DNA of 64,000 bases from Lacibacter luteus. Lineage in GTDB: Bacteria; Bacteroidota; Bacteroidia; Chitinophagales; Chitinophagaceae. The notes beneath the pieces were generated by a model. It was not told the origin of the DNA, did no database searches, and worked only from the letters and a program-made list of their open reading frames with translations. Positions 5,293 through 28,152 of the stretch are shown here, piece by piece (position 1 is the stretch's first letter; each line of letters opens with the position of its first letter). The DNA lies in assembly GCF_004118265.1 (NCBI RefSeq), contig NZ_SDHW01000003.1, forward strand, positions 186,001 to 250,000. Reading direction: 5' to 3'. The translations under genes and the position numbers were made by a program.

Positions 5293-6975
5293 ATGAAGAT
5301 TTTCTTAGCGCAACAAAATTATCATATCGGCAATTTCGAAAGTAATACACAAAAAATAATTACCGCTATTGAAGAAGCCAAACGACAGGGCGGAGATCTC
5401 ATCCTCTTCAGCGAACTGAGTGTTTGCGGCTATGCGCCCCGTGATTTTCTGGAGTTCAATGATTTTATTGAGAAATCGTACAAAGCCATTGATGAAATAA
5501 AACAACATGCCGATGGTATTGCTGTGCTTGTTGGCGCTCCAGATCGTAACAAGCAGCGTGAAGGAAAGGATCTGCATAATGCTGCTTTCTTTTTACACGA
5601 GCAGCAAATAAAAGCAGTGGTGCACAAAACCTGTTTGCCCAACTACGATGTGTTTGATGAGTACCGCTATTTTGAACCGGCTTACGATTGGAACATTGTT
5701 GAGTTTAAAGGAAAGAAATTAGCCATCACCATTTGTGAAGATATCTGGAACCTCGGCGATAATCCACTCTATCGCATTTGCCCGATGGATGAACTGATGA
5801 AGTTTTCTCCTGATCTGATGTTGAATCTTTCTGCATCGCCATTTGATTATACGCATGTGGAAGACCGCAAGGCAATTGTTAAACTGAATGTACAGAAATA
5901 CAAACTGCCGATGCTGTATTGCAACAGTGTGGGCAGTCAAACAGAAATTGTTTTTGATGGCGGTTCGCTGGTGTTTGATAAACATGCAAACATGATTGAA
6001 CATTTGCCATTGTTTGAAGAAGCATTGGTAAGTGTGGAGTTGAATGATGACGGAACATTTGTACAGCCCATACAAACAAAAGCCGAAGCTGTACCCAACG
6101 AAGAATTAAATCCCTTGCATTTAGATGAAACACTCAGCGTAAAAGAAATTCATGATGCCATTATTCTGGGTATTCGTGATTATTTTAAAAAGATGGGTTT
6201 CAGCAAAGCAATACTCGGCAGCAGTGGCGGTATCGACAGTGCAGTAACATTGGCATTGGCCTGTACAGCATTGGGTAAAGAAAATGTGCGTGCTATTTTA
6301 ATGCCTTCACATTATTCAACCGAACATAGTGTGAGCGATGCTGAACAGTTGAGTAAGAAGCTTGGCAATCCCTATGATATTGTACCCATCAAAAATATTT
6401 ACGATAGTTTCTTAACCGAACTGAAACCGATCTTCAACGATCTGCCTTTTTCGTTGGCCGAAGAAAATATTCAAAGCCGCAGCAGGGGAAACTTGTTGAT
6501 GGCTATTGCCAATAAGTTTGGGTACATCTTACTCAATACATCCAACAAAAGTGAACTGGCAACGGGCTACGGTACGTTGTATGGTGATATGGCTGGTGGA
6601 CTTGGTGTGCTGGGTGATTGTTACAAACTGCAGGTATACGAACTGGCGAAATACATTAACCGCAACGAAGAAATTATTCCGGATAACATCATCACCAAAC
6701 CGCCAAGTGCAGAATTAAGACCGGGACAAAAAGACTCCGATTCATTACCCGATTACTCCATACTTGATAAAGTGTTGTATCAATACATCGAACGCCGTCA
6801 AGGACCCAAAGAAATTAAAGCACTGGGTTACGATGCTGCATTGGTTGATCGTGTATTGAAAATGGTAAACGTAAATGAATACAAGCGTAACCAGTTTTGT
6901 CCCATCATTCGTGTAAGCCCCAAAGCGTTTGGAGTGGGAAGAAGATTGCCGATTGTGGCGAAGTATTTAAGTTGA
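5293..6975 (+). CDS. nadE: glutamine-dependent NAD+ synthetase
   Basis: Catalyses the last step of NAD synthesis, amidating NaAD with ammonia from glutamine. Residues 1-260 are a nitrilase-type glutaminase domain, with Glu in FSELSVCGY, Lys in HKTCLPNYDVFDE and the nucleophile Cys in TICEDIWN. Residues about 285-560 are the synthetase domain with the ATP-binding loop SSGGIDSAVT and the segment SNKSELATGYGTLYGDMAGG. At 560 residues it matches the two-domain bacterial type. It starts 191 bases upstream-divergent from gldB. Confidence 0.97.
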   Translation: MKIFLAQQNYHIGNFESNTQKIITAIEEAKRQGGDLILFSELSVCGYAPRDFLEFNDFIEKSYKAIDEIKQHADGIAVLVGAPDRNKQREGKDLHNAAFFLHEQQIKAVVHKTCLPNYDVFDEYRYFEPAYDWNIVEFKGKKLAITICEDIWNLGDNPLYRICPMDELMKFSPDLMLNLSASPFDYTHVEDRKAIVKLNVQKYKLPMLYCNSVGSQTEIVFDGGSLVFDKHANMIEHLPLFEEALVSVELNDDGTFVQPIQTKAEAVPNEELNPLHLDETLSVKEIHDAIILGIRDYFKKMGFSKAILGSSGGIDSAVTLALACTALGKENVRAILMPSHYSTEHSVSDAEQLSKKLGNPYDIVPIKNIYDSFLTELKPIFNDLPFSLAEENIQSRSRGNLLMAIANKFGYILLNTSNKSELATGYGTLYGDMAGGLGVLGDCYKLQVYELAKYINRNEEIIPDNIITKPPSAELRPGQKDSDSLPDYSILDKVLYQYIERRQGPKEIKALGYDAALVDRVLKMVNVNEYKRNQFCPIIRVSPKAFGVGRRLPIVAKYLS

Positions 6976-8988: not shown

Positions 8989-9969
8989 CTATCGGGCAAG
9001 CGATTCACGAGGCCCACCAATAGCATAAGTTGCCTGCACACGCAATGCCTGGCCTTTTGTAAACATATACATGCAGGCATCATCGGTATAATCCATATAA
9101 TTCATGGTCATTTCAATGCCACCATCGCAAGTGCTTATTTTATTTGCCGGCGGGCAACCAAAGTTGTAGGTATAATGGAGCGGCGTATCATCAACATAAT
9201 CATTACCACACTGGCGATCGCCCCAGATATGCCGAAGATTAAAATAATGACCTACTTCATGCGTGGCAGTGCGGCCAAGATCATAATCGGTATAAAGACC
9301 AAAGCCACCACCACGGCCAAATGCAAGTGTATTGATCACCACACCATCGGTTGCTTTATTACCACCGGGGAATTGTGCATAGCCAAGAATGCCGCCACCT
9401 AAATTACATACCCACATGTTTAGTGATGTTTCGGGGCTGGTTGCATCAATACCACCACGTTTCGCATACTTCATTGCGTTGTTGGTAGAAAATGCTGTTA
9501 TTGTTGTGTGTTTGCGGATGACCTGCGTTAATACAAAACGTATTTTGATATCACCCGATTTTACATCGTTATAAGTATTGGTTGTAAACAGATCTCTGTT
9601 CGTTGCAGCAAAGTCTTCATTCAAAACATCTAACTGCGATTGAATCTGTCTGTCAGAAATATTTTGTTCAGGAGTATTGTACAATACGTTTACAACAACA
9701 GGTAATTCAAGAACGCCGTTTACTACTTTGCGATAGGCAGCAGGGTTTTGCATAAACCGGTTTGTAAATGCTTCAATTTCGCTCATGCGGTCTTTTAAAG
9801 TTGGGTCTGCTTTTAATTGTTCCAGGAAAACTTCATAGGTACGGCAGGCTTTTCCCGGAGCTGCTGCGATGAACAATTCTTCAGCTTTCGGTGCGCTTAC
9901 CTGTCGATCCGTTTTTTCACAACCGATCACAATCAATAACAGAATGATGAAAGAATATTTTGTTCTCAT
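8989..9969 (-). CDS. M43-family zinc metalloprotease lipoprotein (copy 1)
   Basis: Predicted exported metalloprotease of 326 residues. The signal peptide ends with a lipobox at IVIGC (Cys 17), so the protein should be membrane anchored. The zinc site HEVGHYFNLRH (His 237, His 241, His 247) followed by IWGD, and a Met-turn MNYMDYTDDACMYMF, are diagnostic of pappalysin-type family M43B. It lacks a T9SS C-terminal domain, unlike many M43 proteases of this phylum. The paralogue at 10115 has nearly the same layout, so the two arose by tandem duplication. Confidence 0.92.
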   Translation of the reverse strand: MRTKYSFIILLLIVIGCEKTDRQVSAPKAEELFIAAAPGKACRTYEVFLEQLKADPTLKDRMSEIEAFTNRFMQNPAAYRKVVNGVLELPVVVNVLYNTPEQNISDRQIQSQLDVLNEDFAATNRDLFTTNTYNDVKSGDIKIRFVLTQVIRKHTTITAFSTNNAMKYAKRGGIDATSPETSLNMWVCNLGGGILGYAQFPGGNKATDGVVINTLAFGRGGGFGLYTDYDLGRTATHEVGHYFNLRHIWGDRQCGNDYVDDTPLHYTYNFGCPPANKISTCDGGIEMTMNYMDYTDDACMYMFTKGQALRVQATYAIGGPRESLAR

Positions 9970-10114: not shown

Positions 10115-11104
10115 TTAGGGAATTAAACTGGCTCTTGGTCCACCTATTGCATATGTTGCCTGCATGCGTGAAGCCTGTCCGGCAGTAAACATATACATAC
10201 ATGCATCATAGGTATAATCCATGTAGTTCATTGTCATTTCAACTGGATTGCCTGCGCAAGTGCTGTAATGAGGGTATGTTGGGCATCCGCCATTCGATGT
10301 GTTGTGTGTAGGCGTATCACTCACACCGTCATTACCGCAAGTGGCATCGCCCCAGATGTGACGTAAATTAAAGTAGTGACCAATTTCATGTGTGGCTGTT
10401 CTGCCTAAGCCATAAGGGGCAGTTGCAGTACCAACCCGGCCAAAGTATTTTGAATCAATAACTACACCATCTGTTGCAAGACTTCCACCAGGAAACTGTG
10501 CGTAACCAAGTATACCACCTCCAATTGTACAAACCCACATATTAAGTGTTGTAGCAGGACTTGTAGGATCGATACCGCCTTGTTTAGATTTTTTCATTGC
10601 ATCTCTGGTACCCCAAGAGTTTTTAGATGTTTGTTTTCTGGTTGTATTAGCTGATGTCCAGATAAAGCGAATCTTAGTATCACCTGAACGGGCACCCTGA
10701 AATAAAGCAGGCGTTAATGAATAATCACTGTTTGTTGCACCAAAATCTTCGTTCAATACATCAATTTGCGATTGAATTTGTGCATCGGAAATATTTTCTG
10801 CTGATGTTCTCCAAAGCACATTTACTTGCACAGGCACTTCCATTACCCCATTTACAAGTTTGTATGCAGATGGGTTTTCTAATACTTTTTGGGTGAACTT
10901 TTCAATTTCATCCATTCTTTTTTTAATTGTTGGGTCTGCCTTAATGTTTTCCTCCAACACTTCATAACTGAAGCAACTACGCAACGTAGTATTGTTTGTT
11001 TCAACCACAGCATCTTCTTGCTTGGTTTGTTTGTCCGATACGGATTTGCTACATCCAAATAACAGCAGCAATGAACCCGCTGCTAACACAGATAACTTCT
11101 TCAT
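10115..11104 (-). CDS. M43-family zinc metalloprotease lipoprotein (copy 2)
   Basis: Tandem paralogue of the preceding protease (329 residues). Signal peptide with lipobox LLFGC near residue 17; zinc motif HEIGHYFNLRH then IWGD; Met-turn MNYMDYTYDACMYMF. A prodomain-like region of about 90 residues (ADPTIKKRMDEIEKFTQKVL) is conserved with copy 1. Substrate unknown; family members cleave extracellular proteins. Ends with its own terminator. Confidence 0.92.
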   Translation of the reverse strand: MKKLSVLAAGSLLLLFGCSKSVSDKQTKQEDAVVETNNTTLRSCFSYEVLEENIKADPTIKKRMDEIEKFTQKVLENPSAYKLVNGVMEVPVQVNVLWRTSAENISDAQIQSQIDVLNEDFGATNSDYSLTPALFQGARSGDTKIRFIWTSANTTRKQTSKNSWGTRDAMKKSKQGGIDPTSPATTLNMWVCTIGGGILGYAQFPGGSLATDGVVIDSKYFGRVGTATAPYGLGRTATHEIGHYFNLRHIWGDATCGNDGVSDTPTHNTSNGGCPTYPHYSTCAGNPVEMTMNYMDYTYDACMYMFTAGQASRMQATYAIGGPRASLIP

Positions 11105-23236: not shown

Positions 23237-25081
23237 ATGACTAGAACCCAGGAAGTTTTACAAGACGTAGTAATCAAGTTCGCCGGCGATAGCGGCGATG
23301 GTATGCAATTGACCGGTAGCCAGTTTACCAACAATACTGCTTTAATGGGTATTGACCTGGCAACCTTCCCCGATTTCCCTGCCGAAATCCGTGCTCCGCA
23401 AGGAACCCTTGCCGGTGTAAGTGGTTACCAGTTGCGCTTTAGCAGCGACAGTGTGTTTACCCCCGGTGATGAGTGCGATGTGTTGGTAGCCATGAATGCT
23501 GCTGCACTGAAAGCAAACCTCAAGGCTATCAAGAAGAGCGGAACAATCATTGTGAATACCGATGGTTTTGATGCAAAAAATCTTCGCCTTGCCAATTATG
23601 CCGATGGTGTAAATCCGTTGGAAGATGATAGTCTTACCAACTACACGGTTATTAAGATGGATGTTACCAAAATGACCCGTGAAGCATTGAGCGATATTAC
23701 AATGGGTATGAAAGAAAAGGACCGTGCAAAGAACATGTTTGTACTCGGGTTCCTTTACTTTATGTACAACCGTGACATGGAGAATACCATCAACTTCCTG
23801 AAAGAAAAGTTTGGTAAGAAACCCGATATTTTAGAAAGTAATATCCGTGTACTCCGTGCCGGTTATAACTATGGCGATACTACCGAAACATTCACTACTA
23901 CTTACAAAGTAGAGAGAGCCAAAATGGAAAGCGGTGTGTACCGTTCTATTATGGGTAACCAGGCGGTGAGTTATGGTTTAATTGCAGCTGCACAGAAAAG
24001 TGGTTTGCAAATGTTCCTCGGTTCTTATCCTATTACTCCTGCGAGCGATATCCTGCACGAACTTTCACGCCACAAAGCTTTTGGCATTAAAACCTTCCAG
24101 GCCGAAGACGAAATTGCTGCAATTACTTCAGCCATTGGTGCTGCTTATGGTGGAGCGTTGGGTGTAACAACCAGCAGTGGTCCGGGTATTGCATTGAAAG
24201 GCGAAGCAATGGGTTTGGCGGTGATGTTGGAAATTCCTTTATTGGTCATCAATATTCAGCGTGGTGGCCCTTCTACAGGTTTGCCAACCAAAACTGAGCA
24301 GAGTGATCTGATGCAGGCTTATTATGGCCGTAACGGCGAATGCCCAATGCCAATTGTTTCTGCATCAACACCTGCCGATTGTTTCGATGCAGTGTATGAA
24401 GCTGTGCGTATTGCAGTACAACACATGACTCCGGTAATGTTCCTCAGCGATGGTTATATCGCCAATGGCGCAGAGCCCTGGCGTTTTCCGAAAGAAGCTG
24501 ATTTACCTGCGATCAATGTAAACTTCAAAAAAGGACTCGACGAAGGCGAAGAAAAATTACAACCGTATAAGCGTGATGAAAAACTGGTTCGTCCATGGGC
24601 TATACCCGGAACAGCCGGTTTGGAACACCGAATTGGAGGTTTGGAAAAACAAGATGGTACGGGTAACATCAGTTACGATGCCGATAACCACCAGCACATG
24701 GTGAAAACAAGACAGGCAAAGGTTGATAAGATCGCTGATTATATTCCTTTACAAAAATTAGACAGCGGTGCTGCAACCGGTAAAGTATTGGTTGTGGGCT
24801 GGGGTAGCACCTATGGTGCAATTAAAAGTGCCTGCAGCGAATTACAGGCGCAGGGTAAACAGGTAGCACATGCACATCTGCGTTATATCCGTCCTTTTCC
24901 TAAAAACCTCGGCGAAATGCTGAAGAGTTATGATACGGTATTGGTGCCTGAGATCAACAACGGCCAGCTCATTCGTATTCTGCGTGATGAATATTTTGTA
25001 GATGCGAAAGGTTACAATAAGATCAAAGGTGTACCCATCACCAAAGGGGAGTTGATTGAAGAGATCGGTAAGTATTTGTAA
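23237..25081 (+). CDS. korA: 2-oxoacid:ferredoxin oxidoreductase, alpha subunit (gamma-alpha fusion)
   Basis: Large subunit (614 residues) of a 2-oxoglutarate/2-oxoacid:acceptor oxidoreductase. Residues 1-190 are the gamma domain (KFAGDSGDGMQLTG, FPAEIRAPQGTLAGVSG); residues 240-460 are the alpha pyrimidine-binding domain (GSYPITPASDILHEL, FQAEDEIAAI, TTSSGPGIALKGEAMG, QRGGPSTGLPTKTEQSDL); residues 500-614 are the transketolase C-like domain (VVGWGSTYGAIKSA). The enzyme needs a beta subunit (KorB) carrying thiamine diphosphate and an Fe-S cluster, normally encoded next door. None is present downstream or elsewhere in this window. Its last codons and terminator are repeated at 26308. Confidence 0.95.
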   Translation: MTRTQEVLQDVVIKFAGDSGDGMQLTGSQFTNNTALMGIDLATFPDFPAEIRAPQGTLAGVSGYQLRFSSDSVFTPGDECDVLVAMNAAALKANLKAIKKSGTIIVNTDGFDAKNLRLANYADGVNPLEDDSLTNYTVIKMDVTKMTREALSDITMGMKEKDRAKNMFVLGFLYFMYNRDMENTINFLKEKFGKKPDILESNIRVLRAGYNYGDTTETFTTTYKVERAKMESGVYRSIMGNQAVSYGLIAAAQKSGLQMFLGSYPITPASDILHELSRHKAFGIKTFQAEDEIAAITSAIGAAYGGALGVTTSSGPGIALKGEAMGLAVMLEIPLLVINIQRGGPSTGLPTKTEQSDLMQAYYGRNGECPMPIVSASTPADCFDAVYEAVRIAVQHMTPVMFLSDGYIANGAEPWRFPKEADLPAINVNFKKGLDEGEEKLQPYKRDEKLVRPWAIPGTAGLEHRIGGLEKQDGTGNISYDADNHQHMVKTRQAKVDKIADYIPLQKLDSGAATGKVLVVGWGSTYGAIKSACSELQAQGKQVAHAHLRYIRPFPKNLGEMLKSYDTVLVPEINNGQLIRILRDEYFVDAKGYNKIKGVPITKGELIEEIGKYL

Positions 25082-25133
25082 GTCTTACTTTCAAAAATAC
25101 CAAAAGGCCTATCAGAAATGATGGGCTTTTTTT
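25061..25133 (+). repeat. 73-bp direct repeat, copy 1 (korA 3' end + terminator)
   Basis: Encodes the C terminus EIGKYL-stop of KorA and the following terminator. Identical to copy 2 at 26308-26380 except one synonymous change (ATC here, ATT there). From GGTAAG onward about 67 bases are identical. Confidence 0.92.
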
Positions 25134-25135
25134 TT
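25107..25135 (+). terminator. korA terminator
   Basis: Stem GCCTATCA / TGATGGGC (one T-G wobble) closed by a GAAA tetraloop and followed by nine T. A second copy lies at 26354-26379. Confidence 0.88.
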
Positions 25136-25270
25136 GTGTAGATTTTCTTATCGGTTGGTGGAGATACGAACCGATAAGGTAAGGCGGAAAGACAATACTT
25201 ATTATGGTTACCATCCATTTTCAGGAAGTGATATATTTAGGAAATAGAAATTCTTCATACTAAGGAGTTA

Positions 25271-25708
25271 ATGAAAAAGATGATATTTTACAGTTTATTA
25301 GTTGTATTTTTTTTGTCTTGCGGATCTGCTGATAAAAAGCTATTTATCAAGTCAATGCAGCTGAATACCTCAGTAAGAGTTGATTGGTACTTTTACAGTT
25401 TGGTTTCTAATTTTTCCAGAAGTTACATTCAGATATCTAAATCAGATACCGAAACTAAATTTTTTGAAAGCTTTTATATTTCTGATTTTAATTTCAGGGC
25501 TGATACATTGGCGGTTCAGTTGTATAAGAATGGTTACAAAATAGACTCAGCGGCACTTTTACAAAGTGGTTTTAAAATTATCATTGATACAACCGGCGGT
25601 ATATGGAATCAAGCTTCGAGTAGATTAGGGCGTCTTCAAAGAAGAAACATTGAGTGTTCTAAACCTCATTTTGAGGATAGTCATTGTCCTAAAAATGAAT
25701 GTTACTGA
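25271..25708 (+). CDS. hypothetical lipoprotein in the AT-rich insert
   Basis: Predicted protein of 145 residues, not recognised. The first 17 residues form a signal peptide ending in the lipobox FFLSC. The body is rich in Lys, Ser, Phe and Ile and contains only one Cys besides the lipobox before a C-terminal tail with CSKPHFEDSHCPKNEC, a small cysteine cluster. It lies inside the segment bounded by the 73-bp repeats; its base composition is clearly more AT-rich than korA, in keeping with acquisition. Confidence 0.6.
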   Translation: MKKMIFYSLLVVFFLSCGSADKKLFIKSMQLNTSVRVDWYFYSLVSNFSRSYIQISKSDTETKFFESFYISDFNFRADTLAVQLYKNGYKIDSAALLQSGFKIIIDTTGGIWNQASSRLGRLQRRNIECSKPHFEDSHCPKNECY

Positions 25709-25836
25709 CAAATATAAAGCCCAGTAGCTCTGGTCTTATCTTTTTATTTGCTGCCGAGTACAGCATTGCCATTCAACACCTAACCTAAAAAATGCAGGAG
25801 ACTCAACAGGTAAGGAAATAGGACGATATATAGTAA

Positions 25837-26130
25837 TTAATATGGAATAAAGCTGTTTGGAATAACTCTAAAATGGCTTAACAAATAAAGAAAAGTAATT
25901 ATCACAATACTCAACACAATACTATCACTGTCAAGATCTTTTTTATGACTAAATCTATTATACAATAAAAGTATTAGCACTTGAATCAAAAAAGACGGTA
26001 AGTAATCCCAAAAACTATATACATAATTATTTCCCATTTTCCCTTTTAAAAATAAATGAAGAATATTCAAATATCTTAACCCAATGAAGATGGCAATATT
26101 GATTGCTATGAAAACTGTTTTTCTAACCAT
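25837..26130 (-). CDS. hypothetical small membrane protein in the insert
   Basis: Predicted protein of 97 residues with three hydrophobic helices (about residues 5-27, 43-60, 70-88). Unrecognised. The segment YSFWDYLPSFLIQVLILLLYNRF loosely resembles the last membrane segment of the DUF2975 protein encoded at 26450 (YDCLPSFFLAVLVFAIYIAF), so it may be a remnant or short relative of that family. An opposite-strand frame covers the 3' part but is less convincing. Confidence 0.45.
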   Translation of the reverse strand: MVRKTVFIAINIAIFIGLRYLNILHLFLKGKMGNNYVYSFWDYLPSFLIQVLILLLYNRFSHKKDLDSDSIVLSIVIITFLYLLSHFRVIPNSFIPY

Positions 26131-26307
26131 TACTTTGAAAATACTAATTAACTATTACTTTAACACCATGTGGTACTTTCATACTTTGGATAGAGTAATT
26201 AGCAACATTCGTATTGGCAACCTTTTAATATGTTTTGCCTTTGTTGCTGTTGCAATTGTTGAATGTTGTACAAAGATTAGAGCAGTAAGTACTACAGCCC
26301 ACTGTCG

Positions 26308-26380
26308 GAGATTGGTAAGTATTTGTAAGTCTTACTTTCAAAAATACCAAAAGGCCTATCAGAAATGATGGGCTTTTTTT
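26308..26380 (+). repeat. 73-bp direct repeat, copy 2
   Basis: Second copy of the korA tail plus terminator, 1,247 bp after the first. Upstream of it the sequence no longer resembles korA, so the copy is limited to the last six codons, the stop and the terminator. Confidence 0.92.
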
Positions 26381-26449
26381 ATTTGAAGGAATTCTGAAAA
26401 AAGGTAATAATTTATTGTTTATCGGTAAATTTTATTCTATAATTGCGAT

Positions 26450-27397
26450 ATGAAAAAACTCCTACAAAATCCCATCGCTATCATTTTATCTGTACTTGCA
26501 AGTGCCTATTTCCTTTTTCTTTTTCTGAGTTGGACGTCAGAATCCGTAAGCTTGTCAAATAGTTATAACTCCTCGGTAATTGATAATCCTGTAAATGACA
26601 CTTCGTACGGAGGATTATTTTATAAACCAACTATCAATGATTCTTTACCGCATTTTCAATACAAACAAATTGAAGACAGCCTTATACAAAAAAATGAACT
26701 TCGATTAGGAAACAATGAGATTGGTGGTAACAGTTTTTCTAATGGGCTGATTGGGTTTACTGAATCGGCTGAAAATGATCAGACAGCGTTGAATAGCAAA
26801 AAAAGTAAGCAATACTTTTTATCGCTTGGAGGTTTTGAACTGGAAGAAGATGTGAAGTTTTATATTGAAAGGAACTCATACAATCTTGTGTATGTGCAAT
26901 GGGATACTGTTCAGAGAACTGGTGATAATATAGAAAGGATAGGTACTTATAAAAGTGTTGTAATTCCTGTACAATATTCAAAAAGAGAGAAAAAAATACT
27001 AATTCCTATCTCGGCTAAGCAATATAAAATAGGTTACATTTTACTAATAGTACTAAGTATATTAATGGGTGCGATGGCATTGTATGTAATCTTTGGTTAT
27101 CCAATACAGTTCTTAGTACGTATATCAAAAGGCCAGGCTTTTACTGAAGTTAATGTTGCAGGGTTACGAATGACTACACTTTTGCTCTTTCTTTTTTTTA
27201 TTGGCTCAGTAGTATTTCCGTTTATTCTTCGAGTTATATTTTCTTCGTATATACATCCACTATTTAAGCCGCTCAAATTCTGGTCGCAACTCTATGATTG
27301 TTTGCCATCGTTTTTTTTAGCCGTGCTTGTTTTTGCCATTTACATTGCATTTAAAAAAGGGTATAAATTGCAAAAGGAACAGGAGTTAACTGTATAA
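26450..27397 (+). CDS. DUF2975 family membrane protein
   Basis: Membrane protein of 315 residues. There is one helix at residues 8-28, a long polar region to about residue 180, then three helices (about 190-215, 240-262, 280-305). The C-terminal half with the pattern GYILLIVLSILMGAMALYVIFGYPIQFLVRISKGQAF matches DUF2975, and the adjacent small HTH protein is the family's standard partner (as in Bacillus YoaS/YozG). The polar N-terminal extension is longer than the simple family core. Role unknown. Confidence 0.8.
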   Translation: MKKLLQNPIAIILSVLASAYFLFLFLSWTSESVSLSNSYNSSVIDNPVNDTSYGGLFYKPTINDSLPHFQYKQIEDSLIQKNELRLGNNEIGGNSFSNGLIGFTESAENDQTALNSKKSKQYFLSLGGFELEEDVKFYIERNSYNLVYVQWDTVQRTGDNIERIGTYKSVVIPVQYSKREKKILIPISAKQYKIGYILLIVLSILMGAMALYVIFGYPIQFLVRISKGQAFTEVNVAGLRMTTLLLFLFFIGSVVFPFILRVIFSSYIHPLFKPLKFWSQLYDCLPSFFLAVLVFAIYIAFKKGYKLQKEQELTV

Positions 27398-27398
27398 C

Positions 27399-27635
27399 AT
27401 GCCCATTGTAGTAAACCTTGATGTAATGCTGGCAAAACGTAAAATGTCGCTCACCGAATTGAGCGAACGTGTCAATATTACCATGGGGAATCTCAGTATT
27501 CTTAAAACCGGTAAAGCAAAAGCAATTCGTTTTTCTACGTTAGACGATATCTGTAAAGTATTACAATGCCAGCCAGGCGATATTCTGGAATATATGTCGA
27601 ATGAAGATTATGAACGACTGATGTCTAAAGAATAA
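27399..27635 (+). CDS. Cro/C1-type HTH regulator (YozG-like)
   Basis: Small DNA-binding protein of 78 residues. The helix-turn-helix is LTELSERVNITMGNLSILKTGK, followed by FSTLDDICKVLQCQPGDILEY, the signature of the HTH_26/YozG group. It begins 1 base after the DUF2975 stop, so the pair is translationally linked. These pairs are accessory genes; the regulator probably controls its own operon, by inference. Confidence 0.9.
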   Translation: MPIVVNLDVMLAKRKMSLTELSERVNITMGNLSILKTGKAKAIRFSTLDDICKVLQCQPGDILEYMSNEDYERLMSKE

Positions 27636-27705
27636 ATTACCACTGATGGATTTTTCGTTTTTCCATCTGACAATAGCATTTAATTTGTTTTCAAATCTTA
27701 TGATC

Positions 27706-28152
27706 ATGAACAGAATATTCTTTCTTGCTATGTGCATTGTTTTATCGCTTACAACAATTGCACAGCAAACAAAGGCCCCAATTGAAAAAGAAAAATGGCA
27801 TTGGGGCAATCCCAACAAACAAGATACTGCATCGGGTTATGCACAAACACTTAAAGTGGGTGATGTGCTGTACATATCGGGTACGGTTTCAACAACACTT
27901 GATGAAGCAGGAGTAAAACGTTTGTACAGCGGACTGGAACGCTCATTGAAACAATACGGATTAACTTTTCAGCATGTGGTAAAAGAAAATCTGTACACTA
28001 CCGATATTGAAGCGATGAAGCAATTGAACGATGTGCGCAAACAGTTTTACAAAGGCGATTTTCCTGCTGCTACCTGGGTACAGATAACCCGGTTGTTTAT
28101 GCCCGAAGCAAAACTGGAAGTTGAGTTGGTAGCACATTTTCCAAAGCAATAA
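27706..28152 (+). CDS. RidA/YjgF family protein with signal peptide
   Basis: RidA-fold protein (148 residues) that, unusually for a family of mostly cytosolic enamine/imine deaminases, carries a signal peptide (MNRIFFLAMCIVLSLTTIAQ). Family marks: YAQTLKVGDVLYISGTVS, VVKENLYTTDIEAMKQLNDV and FPAATWVQITRLFMPEAKLEVELVA. The Arg of the usual P-x-R-x-x-V catalytic block is replaced: here it reads FPAATWVQI, so deaminase activity is doubtful. Start chosen at 27706; 27700 is equally possible. Confidence 0.85.
   Translation: MNRIFFLAMCIVLSLTTIAQQTKAPIEKEKWHWGNPNKQDTASGYAQTLKVGDVLYISGTVSTTLDEAGVKRLYSGLERSLKQYGLTFQHVVKENLYTTDIEAMKQLNDVRKQFYKGDFPAATWVQITRLFMPEAKLEVELVAHFPKQ

What the first reader, a model, noticed from the sequence alone, without database searches (positions are those of the whole stretch)
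25061..26380. korA tail and terminator duplicated around a 1.2-kb AT-rich insert
A 73-base block holding the last six codons of korA, its stop and its terminator appears at 25061 and again at 26308. The copies differ by one synonymous base (ATC to ATT). Upstream of copy 2 the sequence is unrelated to korA. The enclosed segment is AT-rich and encodes only an unrecognised lipoprotein and a small membrane protein. This resembles an element inserted at a gene 3' end that brings its own restoring copy of the tail, but no integrase is visible. It could be a degraded or trans-mobilised mini-element, or a recombination product with a related korA allele.
Basis: partly seen in the sequence, partly recalled or inferred. 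Interest (0 to 1): 0.62.

Follow-up and report, generated by a model that had tools for sequence, protein, structure and literature searches.

The report
Recombination scar after a metabolic gene
A short piece from the end of a housekeeping gene is repeated on the far side of about 1.2 kb of acquired DNA; this is most likely the scar left when the cell picked up foreign DNA by imprecise recombination, not a new kind of mobile element.

Summary
The korA 3' end with its terminator (25061-25133) recurs at 26308-26380, 72 of 73 bases identical, and the own-genome search found no other copy. The genus is taken to be Lacibacter. In 5 of 13 genus relatives korA, one short terminator and a RidA-family gene are adjacent: an empty site. 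Relative to L. cauensis, 25094-27631 replaces 21 bp, so the neighbouring DUF2975/HTH pair is also extra. No recombinase was found in the insert. Best reading: insertion by one homologous and one illegitimate junction (homology-facilitated illegitimate recombination, or single crossover of a small circle), which leaves a duplicated gene tail. A second tail scar lies about 60 kb away in the same contig; over its last 16 codons and stop the two copies differ only synonymously, as expected for an allele from another lineage. Another Chitinophagaceae genome has its korA terminator duplicated around a three-gene cargo. The lipoprotein may be an orphan immunity-type protein: 2 of 5 homolog loci read have it 5-12 nt behind related RHS-type C-termini. 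Real, but ordinary in kind; donor and mechanism are inferred.

The parts
23237..25081 (+). korA: 2-oxoacid:acceptor oxidoreductase subunit alpha, 614 aa, intact
   Evidence: TIGR03710 673.6 bits, cut-off 482.75; Pfam POR_N and POR
25061..25133 (+). Block copy 1: last six korA codons, stop, terminator
   Evidence: 72 of 73 identical to copy 2
25102..25131 (+). korA terminator hairpin (copy 1), followed by a T run
   Evidence: RNA fold of the block, z -4.3
25144..25178 (.). REP palindrome just behind copy 1
   Evidence: similar copies at own-genome C28:31694, C26:127082 and, weakly (E 0.06), C25:162605; inverted pair around a RAYT-like ORF in L049 (RAYT recognised by eye)
25271..25708 (+). Lipoprotein ORF, 145 aa; probable orphan immunity-type protein (inferred)
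   Evidence: homologs directly behind RHS-type C-termini in G070 and G545
25837..26130 (-). Small membrane-protein ORF, 97 aa, function unknown
   Evidence: best relative 27% identical, E 5.1e-5
26131..26307 (.). Right end of the insert, ending at the presumed illegitimate junction
   Evidence: 51 bp at 82% in G006; other family matches 20-59 bp
26308..26380 (+). Block copy 2: orphan korA tail and terminator
26450..27397 (+). DUF2975 protein, 315 aa, also absent from relatives at this site
   Evidence: PF11188 37.7 bits, cut-off 27
27399..27635 (+). Cro/C1-type HTH regulator, 78 aa, next to DUF2975
   Evidence: PF13443 84.4 bits, cut-off 22; 67-73% DNA matches over the end of DUF2975 and the HTH gene at other places in 10 of 14 genus genomes, own paralog at C22:56065 included
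27632..27661 (+). Remnant of the genus-type korA terminator; homology with relatives resumes here
   Evidence: aligned to L. cauensis, 0 of 2000 shuffles as good; blast edge
27646..28152 (+). RidA-family ORF, native right neighbour of korA (true start probably further in)
   Evidence: PF01042 61.9 bits; directly behind korA in G002, G003, G006, G009, G013

Best explanation
It is a scar of foreign-gene acquisition. A recipient with korA, terminator, DUF2975 and HTH took up DNA from a very close relative whose korA was followed by the REP, the lipoprotein gene and the membrane-protein gene. One junction was homologous, in the korA tail or further up in korA. The other was illegitimate and joined the end of the incoming cargo to the recipient's korA six codons before its stop. 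The result keeps an intact korA and terminator in front, inserts the cargo, and leaves the second korA tail and terminator behind it. The same product forms whether the incoming DNA was linear (homology-facilitated illegitimate recombination, with the illegitimate join upstream of the end of the homologous tract) or a 1247-bp circle integrating by one crossover in the tail. Shown: the two copies, the empty site in relatives, no recombinase in the insert, a second gene-tail duplication in the same genome. Inferred: donor, order of events, which copy came from whom, the route. The lipoprotein may protect against a non-self RHS-type toxin (inferred).
For: Empty site: korA, one terminator and RidA in 5 of 13 genus relatives; 21 bp in L. 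cauensis where the window has 25094-27631. In 13 genus relatives the lipoprotein/membrane-protein segment matches only as fragments of at most 52 bp. Block found at two places only. Second tail duplication in the same contig, 64 bp at 86%, around two genes: the last 16 codons and stop are the same in protein and differ at 5 of 51 bases, all synonymous; over 63 nt copies 1 and 2 share 53, copy 1 and L. cauensis 53, copy 2 and L. cauensis 55, so copy 2 is about as far from copy 1 as either is from another species, which points to divergence inside a working gene before truncation. The korA-nth gap holds extra genes in 5 of 9 relatives read. In G325 the korA terminator flanks a three-gene cargo; its two matches in that genome are these. 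Precedents, passages read: in E. coli 56 of 60 clones carried a partial duplication of the anchor gene's end, 109-950 bp in the 14 sequenced, assigned to single crossover of truncated circles (PMC3240628); in Vibrio cholerae displacement is proposed to leave effector 3' ends and orphan immunity genes (PMC5361080).
Against: No donor-type strain (korA, REP, lipoprotein, membrane protein in a row and then other DNA) was found, so the second junction and any microhomology cannot be read. The single korA difference cannot show which copy is resident. A tail copied up to the terminator T run also fits site-specific integration. I counted only 2 such gene-tail pairs in 2.01 of 5.07 Mb. At the second locus the DNA inserted next to the tail relative to L. 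cauensis is only about 150 bp of REP-like sequence plus the tail, and a following 150-aa ORF was not found in the L. cauensis stretch, so its history is not the simple two-step one. Competence or DNA uptake in this organism was not tested.
Confidence: 0.6

Rival explanations
1. A mini integrative element, degraded or mobilised in trans, uses the korA 3' end as attB and carries its own restoring tail as attP.
For: Position at a gene 3' end; 72 of 73 identity with one synonymous change; AT-rich cargo; six PF00589 matches elsewhere in the genome.
Against: No integrase in the insert; none found behind korA in 89 loci with a profile from three own integrases, no control run; the block occurs at this place only; the insert occurs once apart from REP palindromes; no tail duplication in 79 korA loci except one terminator-only case.
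Confidence: 0.17
2. The second tail is the remainder of a tandem korA duplication (or merodiploid) whose second gene body was deleted, with the cargo arriving before or during that deletion.
For: Gives an intact korA, intervening DNA and an orphan tail; gene duplications exist in this genome.
Against: No other korA remnant between the copies; needs more steps; for the pirin-like scar it would have to place copy 2 as far from copy 1 as the L. cauensis gene is.
Confidence: 0.12
3. A template-switch or replication-slippage rearrangement within one genome copied the korA tail and terminator to the end of a segment moved from elsewhere.
For: Copies nearly identical; REP palindrome at the left edge could stall replication.
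Against: No second copy of the moved segment in the genome; AT-rich content and absence from 13 genus relatives point to foreign DNA.
Confidence: 0.08

Closest known systems
Homology-facilitated illegitimate recombination and single-crossover products with partial anchor duplication (PMC3240628: abstract and passages read; the Acinetobacter, Pseudomonas stutzeri and Streptococcus reports seen only as citations)
   Same: Foreign DNA joined by homology on one side and illegitimately on the other; partial duplication of the end of the anchor gene around the insert
   Different: Inferred here from genome comparison in Lacibacter; no donor, no assay, no competence data
Displacement of T6SS effector genes with orphan immunity genes in Vibrio cholerae (PMC5361080: abstract and passages read)
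   Same: Leftover gene 3' end behind newly acquired genes; possible orphan immunity gene
   Different: Here the anchor is a housekeeping gene, no toxin gene is present, and the immunity role is only inferred from neighbours in two other genomes
Integrative elements at the 3' end of protein-coding genes (recalled, no paper read)
   Same: Gene 3' end repeated on both sides of foreign DNA, reading frame restored
   Different: No recombinase in the insert, 1.2 kb only, no second occurrence
REP sequences of RAYT transposases (recalled; copies seen)
   Same: The palindrome behind copy 1 recurs in the genome and flanks a RAYT-like ORF in L. cauensis
   Different: A REP does not account for the duplicated tail

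Membership tests
Acquisition scar (one homologous, one illegitimate junction) | Empty site in relatives | tested here: met
   5 of 13 genus relatives
Acquisition scar (one homologous, one illegitimate junction) | Partial duplication of the anchor gene around the insert | tested here: met
   72 of 73 bases
Acquisition scar (one homologous, one illegitimate junction) | Donor arrangement and illegitimate junction (microhomology) visible | tested here: inconclusive
   no donor-type locus among 13 genus relatives or 79 korA loci
Acquisition scar (one homologous, one illegitimate junction) | DNA uptake and RecA-dependent recombination in this organism | not testable with these tools
   needs experiment
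Integrative element at a gene 3' end | Own site-specific recombinase | tested here: not met
   insert holds two ORFs, neither a recombinase
Integrative element at a gene 3' end | Recombinase-bearing relatives at the same site | tested here: inconclusive
   none in 89 loci, narrow profile, no positive control
Integrative element at a gene 3' end | Excision as a circle | not testable with these tools
   no reads or strains
RHS-type immunity protein (lipoprotein ORF) | Family members directly behind toxin C-termini | tested here: inconclusive
   2 of 5 homolog loci read: G070, G545; not G288, G139, G082
RHS-type immunity protein (lipoprotein ORF) | Neutralises a toxin | not testable with these tools
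   needs experiment

The most novel reading that the evidence does not exclude
Gene ends with their terminators, korA's in particular, are preferred docking points in Chitinophagaceae: incoming cargo is joined so that a terminator copy is left on both sides, which insulates cargo and host gene, by a terminator-directed or trans-acting mechanism not yet described. The korA cases in this genome and in G325 and the pirin-like scar would be instances.
Probability: 0.08. Interest if true: 0.55.

Novelty: new member of a known kind. Interest (0 to 1): 0.25.

Why it matters
Such tail scars record gene gain without any mobile element. The pirin-like case shows that a scar can keep codon-level divergence from another lineage, so scars might be used to infer donor and direction. 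It also places a possible orphan immunity gene at a variable site behind a housekeeping gene. As a single locus it is a clean example of a known process.

Tried and rejected
Common terminator repeat: rejected, two places only. Vertical duplication shared by relatives: rejected. Cassette or attC-like end of the insert: the right end matches G006 over 51 bp; 37 of 394 family genomes, own included, gave short matches at E up to 0.01, and the eight loci I printed share no common structure; dropped. Phage or plasmid origin of the cargo: no relative in viral contigs for either protein nor for the 21-nt terminator core; no plasmid match for the lipoprotein; the membrane protein was not searched in plasmids and neither in the phage records. 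Rfam: three matches, all below gathering scores. Lipoprotein structure: single-sequence model with mean pLDDT 37, unusable; no fold search made. Terminator duplication in G012: its left remnant was no better than shuffles (372, 516 and 552 of 2000 as good); withdrawn although my notes state it. Block terminator as a diverged form of the genus terminator: 27 of 2000 shuffles as good, too weak to use. RHS link for the membrane protein: its best relative lies about 1.1 kb behind an RHS-like ORF with a gene on the other strand between them; not claimed. Papers on Lacibacter genomes: listing only, nothing used. A search for six terms on duplicated tails and terminators at insertion hotspots returned no paper; this shows only that no held paper holds all six terms. 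PMC2884548 passages on illegitimate recombination as a source of small variable segments were seen.

Full report
Observation. The direct repeat is real: 25061-25133 against 26308-26380, 72 of 73 bases, with a weaker match on to 88 nt. It contains six korA codons, the stop and a stable hairpin with a T run. The search of the own genome (5.07 Mb, 28 contigs) found no other copy. Apart from itself the insert DNA (25136-26307) matches three short places, the REP palindrome.

Where it is. The best named korA relative is Lacibacter cauensis NZ_VLLE01000003.1. Of 13 genus relatives, five (G002, G003, G006, G009, G013) have korA, a short terminator and the RidA-family gene in a row; in G004 the contig ends 93 bp after the korA stop, and the others have other neighbours. 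In L. cauensis the matches to the window end at 25093 and resume at 27632, with 21 bp between them. The window's 27632-27661 aligns to the genus-type korA terminator, 0 of 2000 shuffles as good. So 25094-27631 is extra relative to that species: lipoprotein and membrane protein between the blocks, then DUF2975 and HTH after copy 2. The korA-nth gap holds extra genes in 5 of 9 relatives read (G002, G008, G010, G011, G012) and none in G001, G006, G009 and G013, so it is a variable site.

Is the duplication general? A search for a second korA tail in the 9 relatives found only matches of 10-17 nt. Of 80 korA loci from named genomes, 79 had at least 500 bp downstream. Apart from the built-in 40-nt overlap of query and target, two showed anything: L147, a 36-nt repeat of the korA terminator about 1.6 kb on, and L159, a 14-nt match (E 0.004) taken as chance. 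Two of the 79 (L090, L091) are the same places as G009 and G011. In the genome of L147 (G325) the terminator matches twice, on both sides of three ORFs (cupin-, GNAT- and cupin-like by eye), the second copy at a contig end.

Other scars in the own genome. A scan of 2.01 Mb for repeats of at least 35 nt within 10 kb, both strands, gave 109 pairs. Most are repeats inside genes, paralogs or intergenic repeats. By my reading two carry a gene tail whose other copy has no gene, with other genes between: korA, and a pirin-like gene at C22:148494-148557/151087-151150 (the names pirin, PTPS and Gfo/Idh are recalled from the sequences, no family search was run). Other pairs bearing a tail label (for example C26:18655, C26:80633, C22:270668, C22:391300, C21:2971) I took for tandem or intergenic repeats; I printed the sequence of only C22:270668 and C22:391300 among these. 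No gene-head or mid-gene control count was made. In the pirin-like case the last 16 codons and the stop encode the same residues in copy 1, copy 2 and L. cauensis, while copies 1 and 2 differ at 5 of 51 bases there. Over 63 nt, copies 1 and 2 share 53, copy 1 and L. cauensis 53, copy 2 and L. cauensis 55. The leftover tail therefore seems to have diverged within a working gene of another lineage. L. cauensis has the same three genes with one tail. What is inserted next to the tail there is REP-like DNA, partly matched by G003 behind its PTPS-like gene, so the order of events at that locus stays open.

Mechanism. The minimum is one homologous and one illegitimate junction. A linear fragment anchored in korA whose free end joins the recipient's korA six codons before the stop gives the product; so does a 1247-bp circle with one crossover in the tail. 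The E. coli study reports such partial duplications in 56 of 60 clones, 109-950 bp in the 14 sequenced, and assigns them to single crossover of truncated circles (PMC3240628, abstract and passages read). The Vibrio study proposes the linear route for leftover effector 3' ends and orphan immunity genes (PMC5361080, abstract and passages read). The two routes cannot be told apart here.

Element reading. No recombinase lies in the insert. A profile built from three own integrases found nothing in up to 6 kb behind korA in 89 loci (464 kb; two places counted twice); the profile is narrow and was not tested on a positive control, so divergent recombinases could be missed. Six PF00589 matches lie elsewhere in the genome, so help in trans is not excluded.

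Cargo. The lipoprotein matches no Pfam or NCBIfam model. Searches gave matches in 8 of 294 family genomes at E 0.01 (own included; strongest G288, 44%, 1.8e-27) and, with a three-row profile, in 4 of 396 order genomes at E 1e-4 (own, G070, G545, G139; G070 is itself a row of the profile). In G070 it starts 12 nt after a 1608-aa protein with a DUF6443 domain and RHS-like core motifs, in G545 5 nt after a 229-aa ORF that is 38% identical over 201 residues to that protein's C-terminus (E 8e-36). In the stretches read around G288, G139 and G082 no such neighbour was seen. The own genome gave no match to the G545 ORF (an empty answer of limited weight). I infer an orphan immunity-type lipoprotein, moderately likely. 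The membrane protein has only weak relatives.

Verdict. Observation confirmed; insertion supported; a one-sided recombination scar is preferred over a mini-element. New member of a known kind, low to moderate interest.

Noticed in passing
own genome C21:463269-476144 (L269): Integrase-like ORF of about 399 aa, then methyltransferase- and Vsr-like genes and small genes separated by about 200-bp repeats (473085, 473843, 475262; 74-89% alike): looks like a cassette array or chromosomal integron (names by eye).
   Followed up: partly
own genome C22:148494-148557 and 151087-151150 (L177): Second gene-tail duplication: tail of a pirin-like gene repeated behind a PTPS-like and a Gfo/Idh-like gene, synonymous differences over the last 16 codons.
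   Followed up: yes
L147:6495-8214 (G325:C95): korA terminator duplicated around a cupin-, GNAT- and cupin-like cargo in another Chitinophagaceae MAG; second copy at the contig end.
   Followed up: partly
L074:5540-5676 and 6152-6464 (G288): Long imperfect palindromes between small genes around the 44% lipoprotein homolog, resembling an attC-type cassette array (by eye).
   Followed up: no
L049:1363-2029 (L. cauensis, G009:C1): RAYT-like ORF (1417-1962) flanked by inverted REP copies 91% alike, same palindrome family as window 25144-25178.
   Followed up: partly
L310:6606-11846 (G545): Run of RHS-type fragments and small genes, a likely array of displaced toxin C-termini and immunity genes.
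   Followed up: partly
L081 (G012), 1859-2578 on the reverse-complemented locus: 239-aa ORF without a Pfam match at E 0.01 as a different cargo in the same korA-RidA gap, with a REP-like palindrome behind it.
   Followed up: partly
window 9011-9837 and 10137-10966: Two neighbouring paralogous stretches, 66% alike.
   Followed up: no
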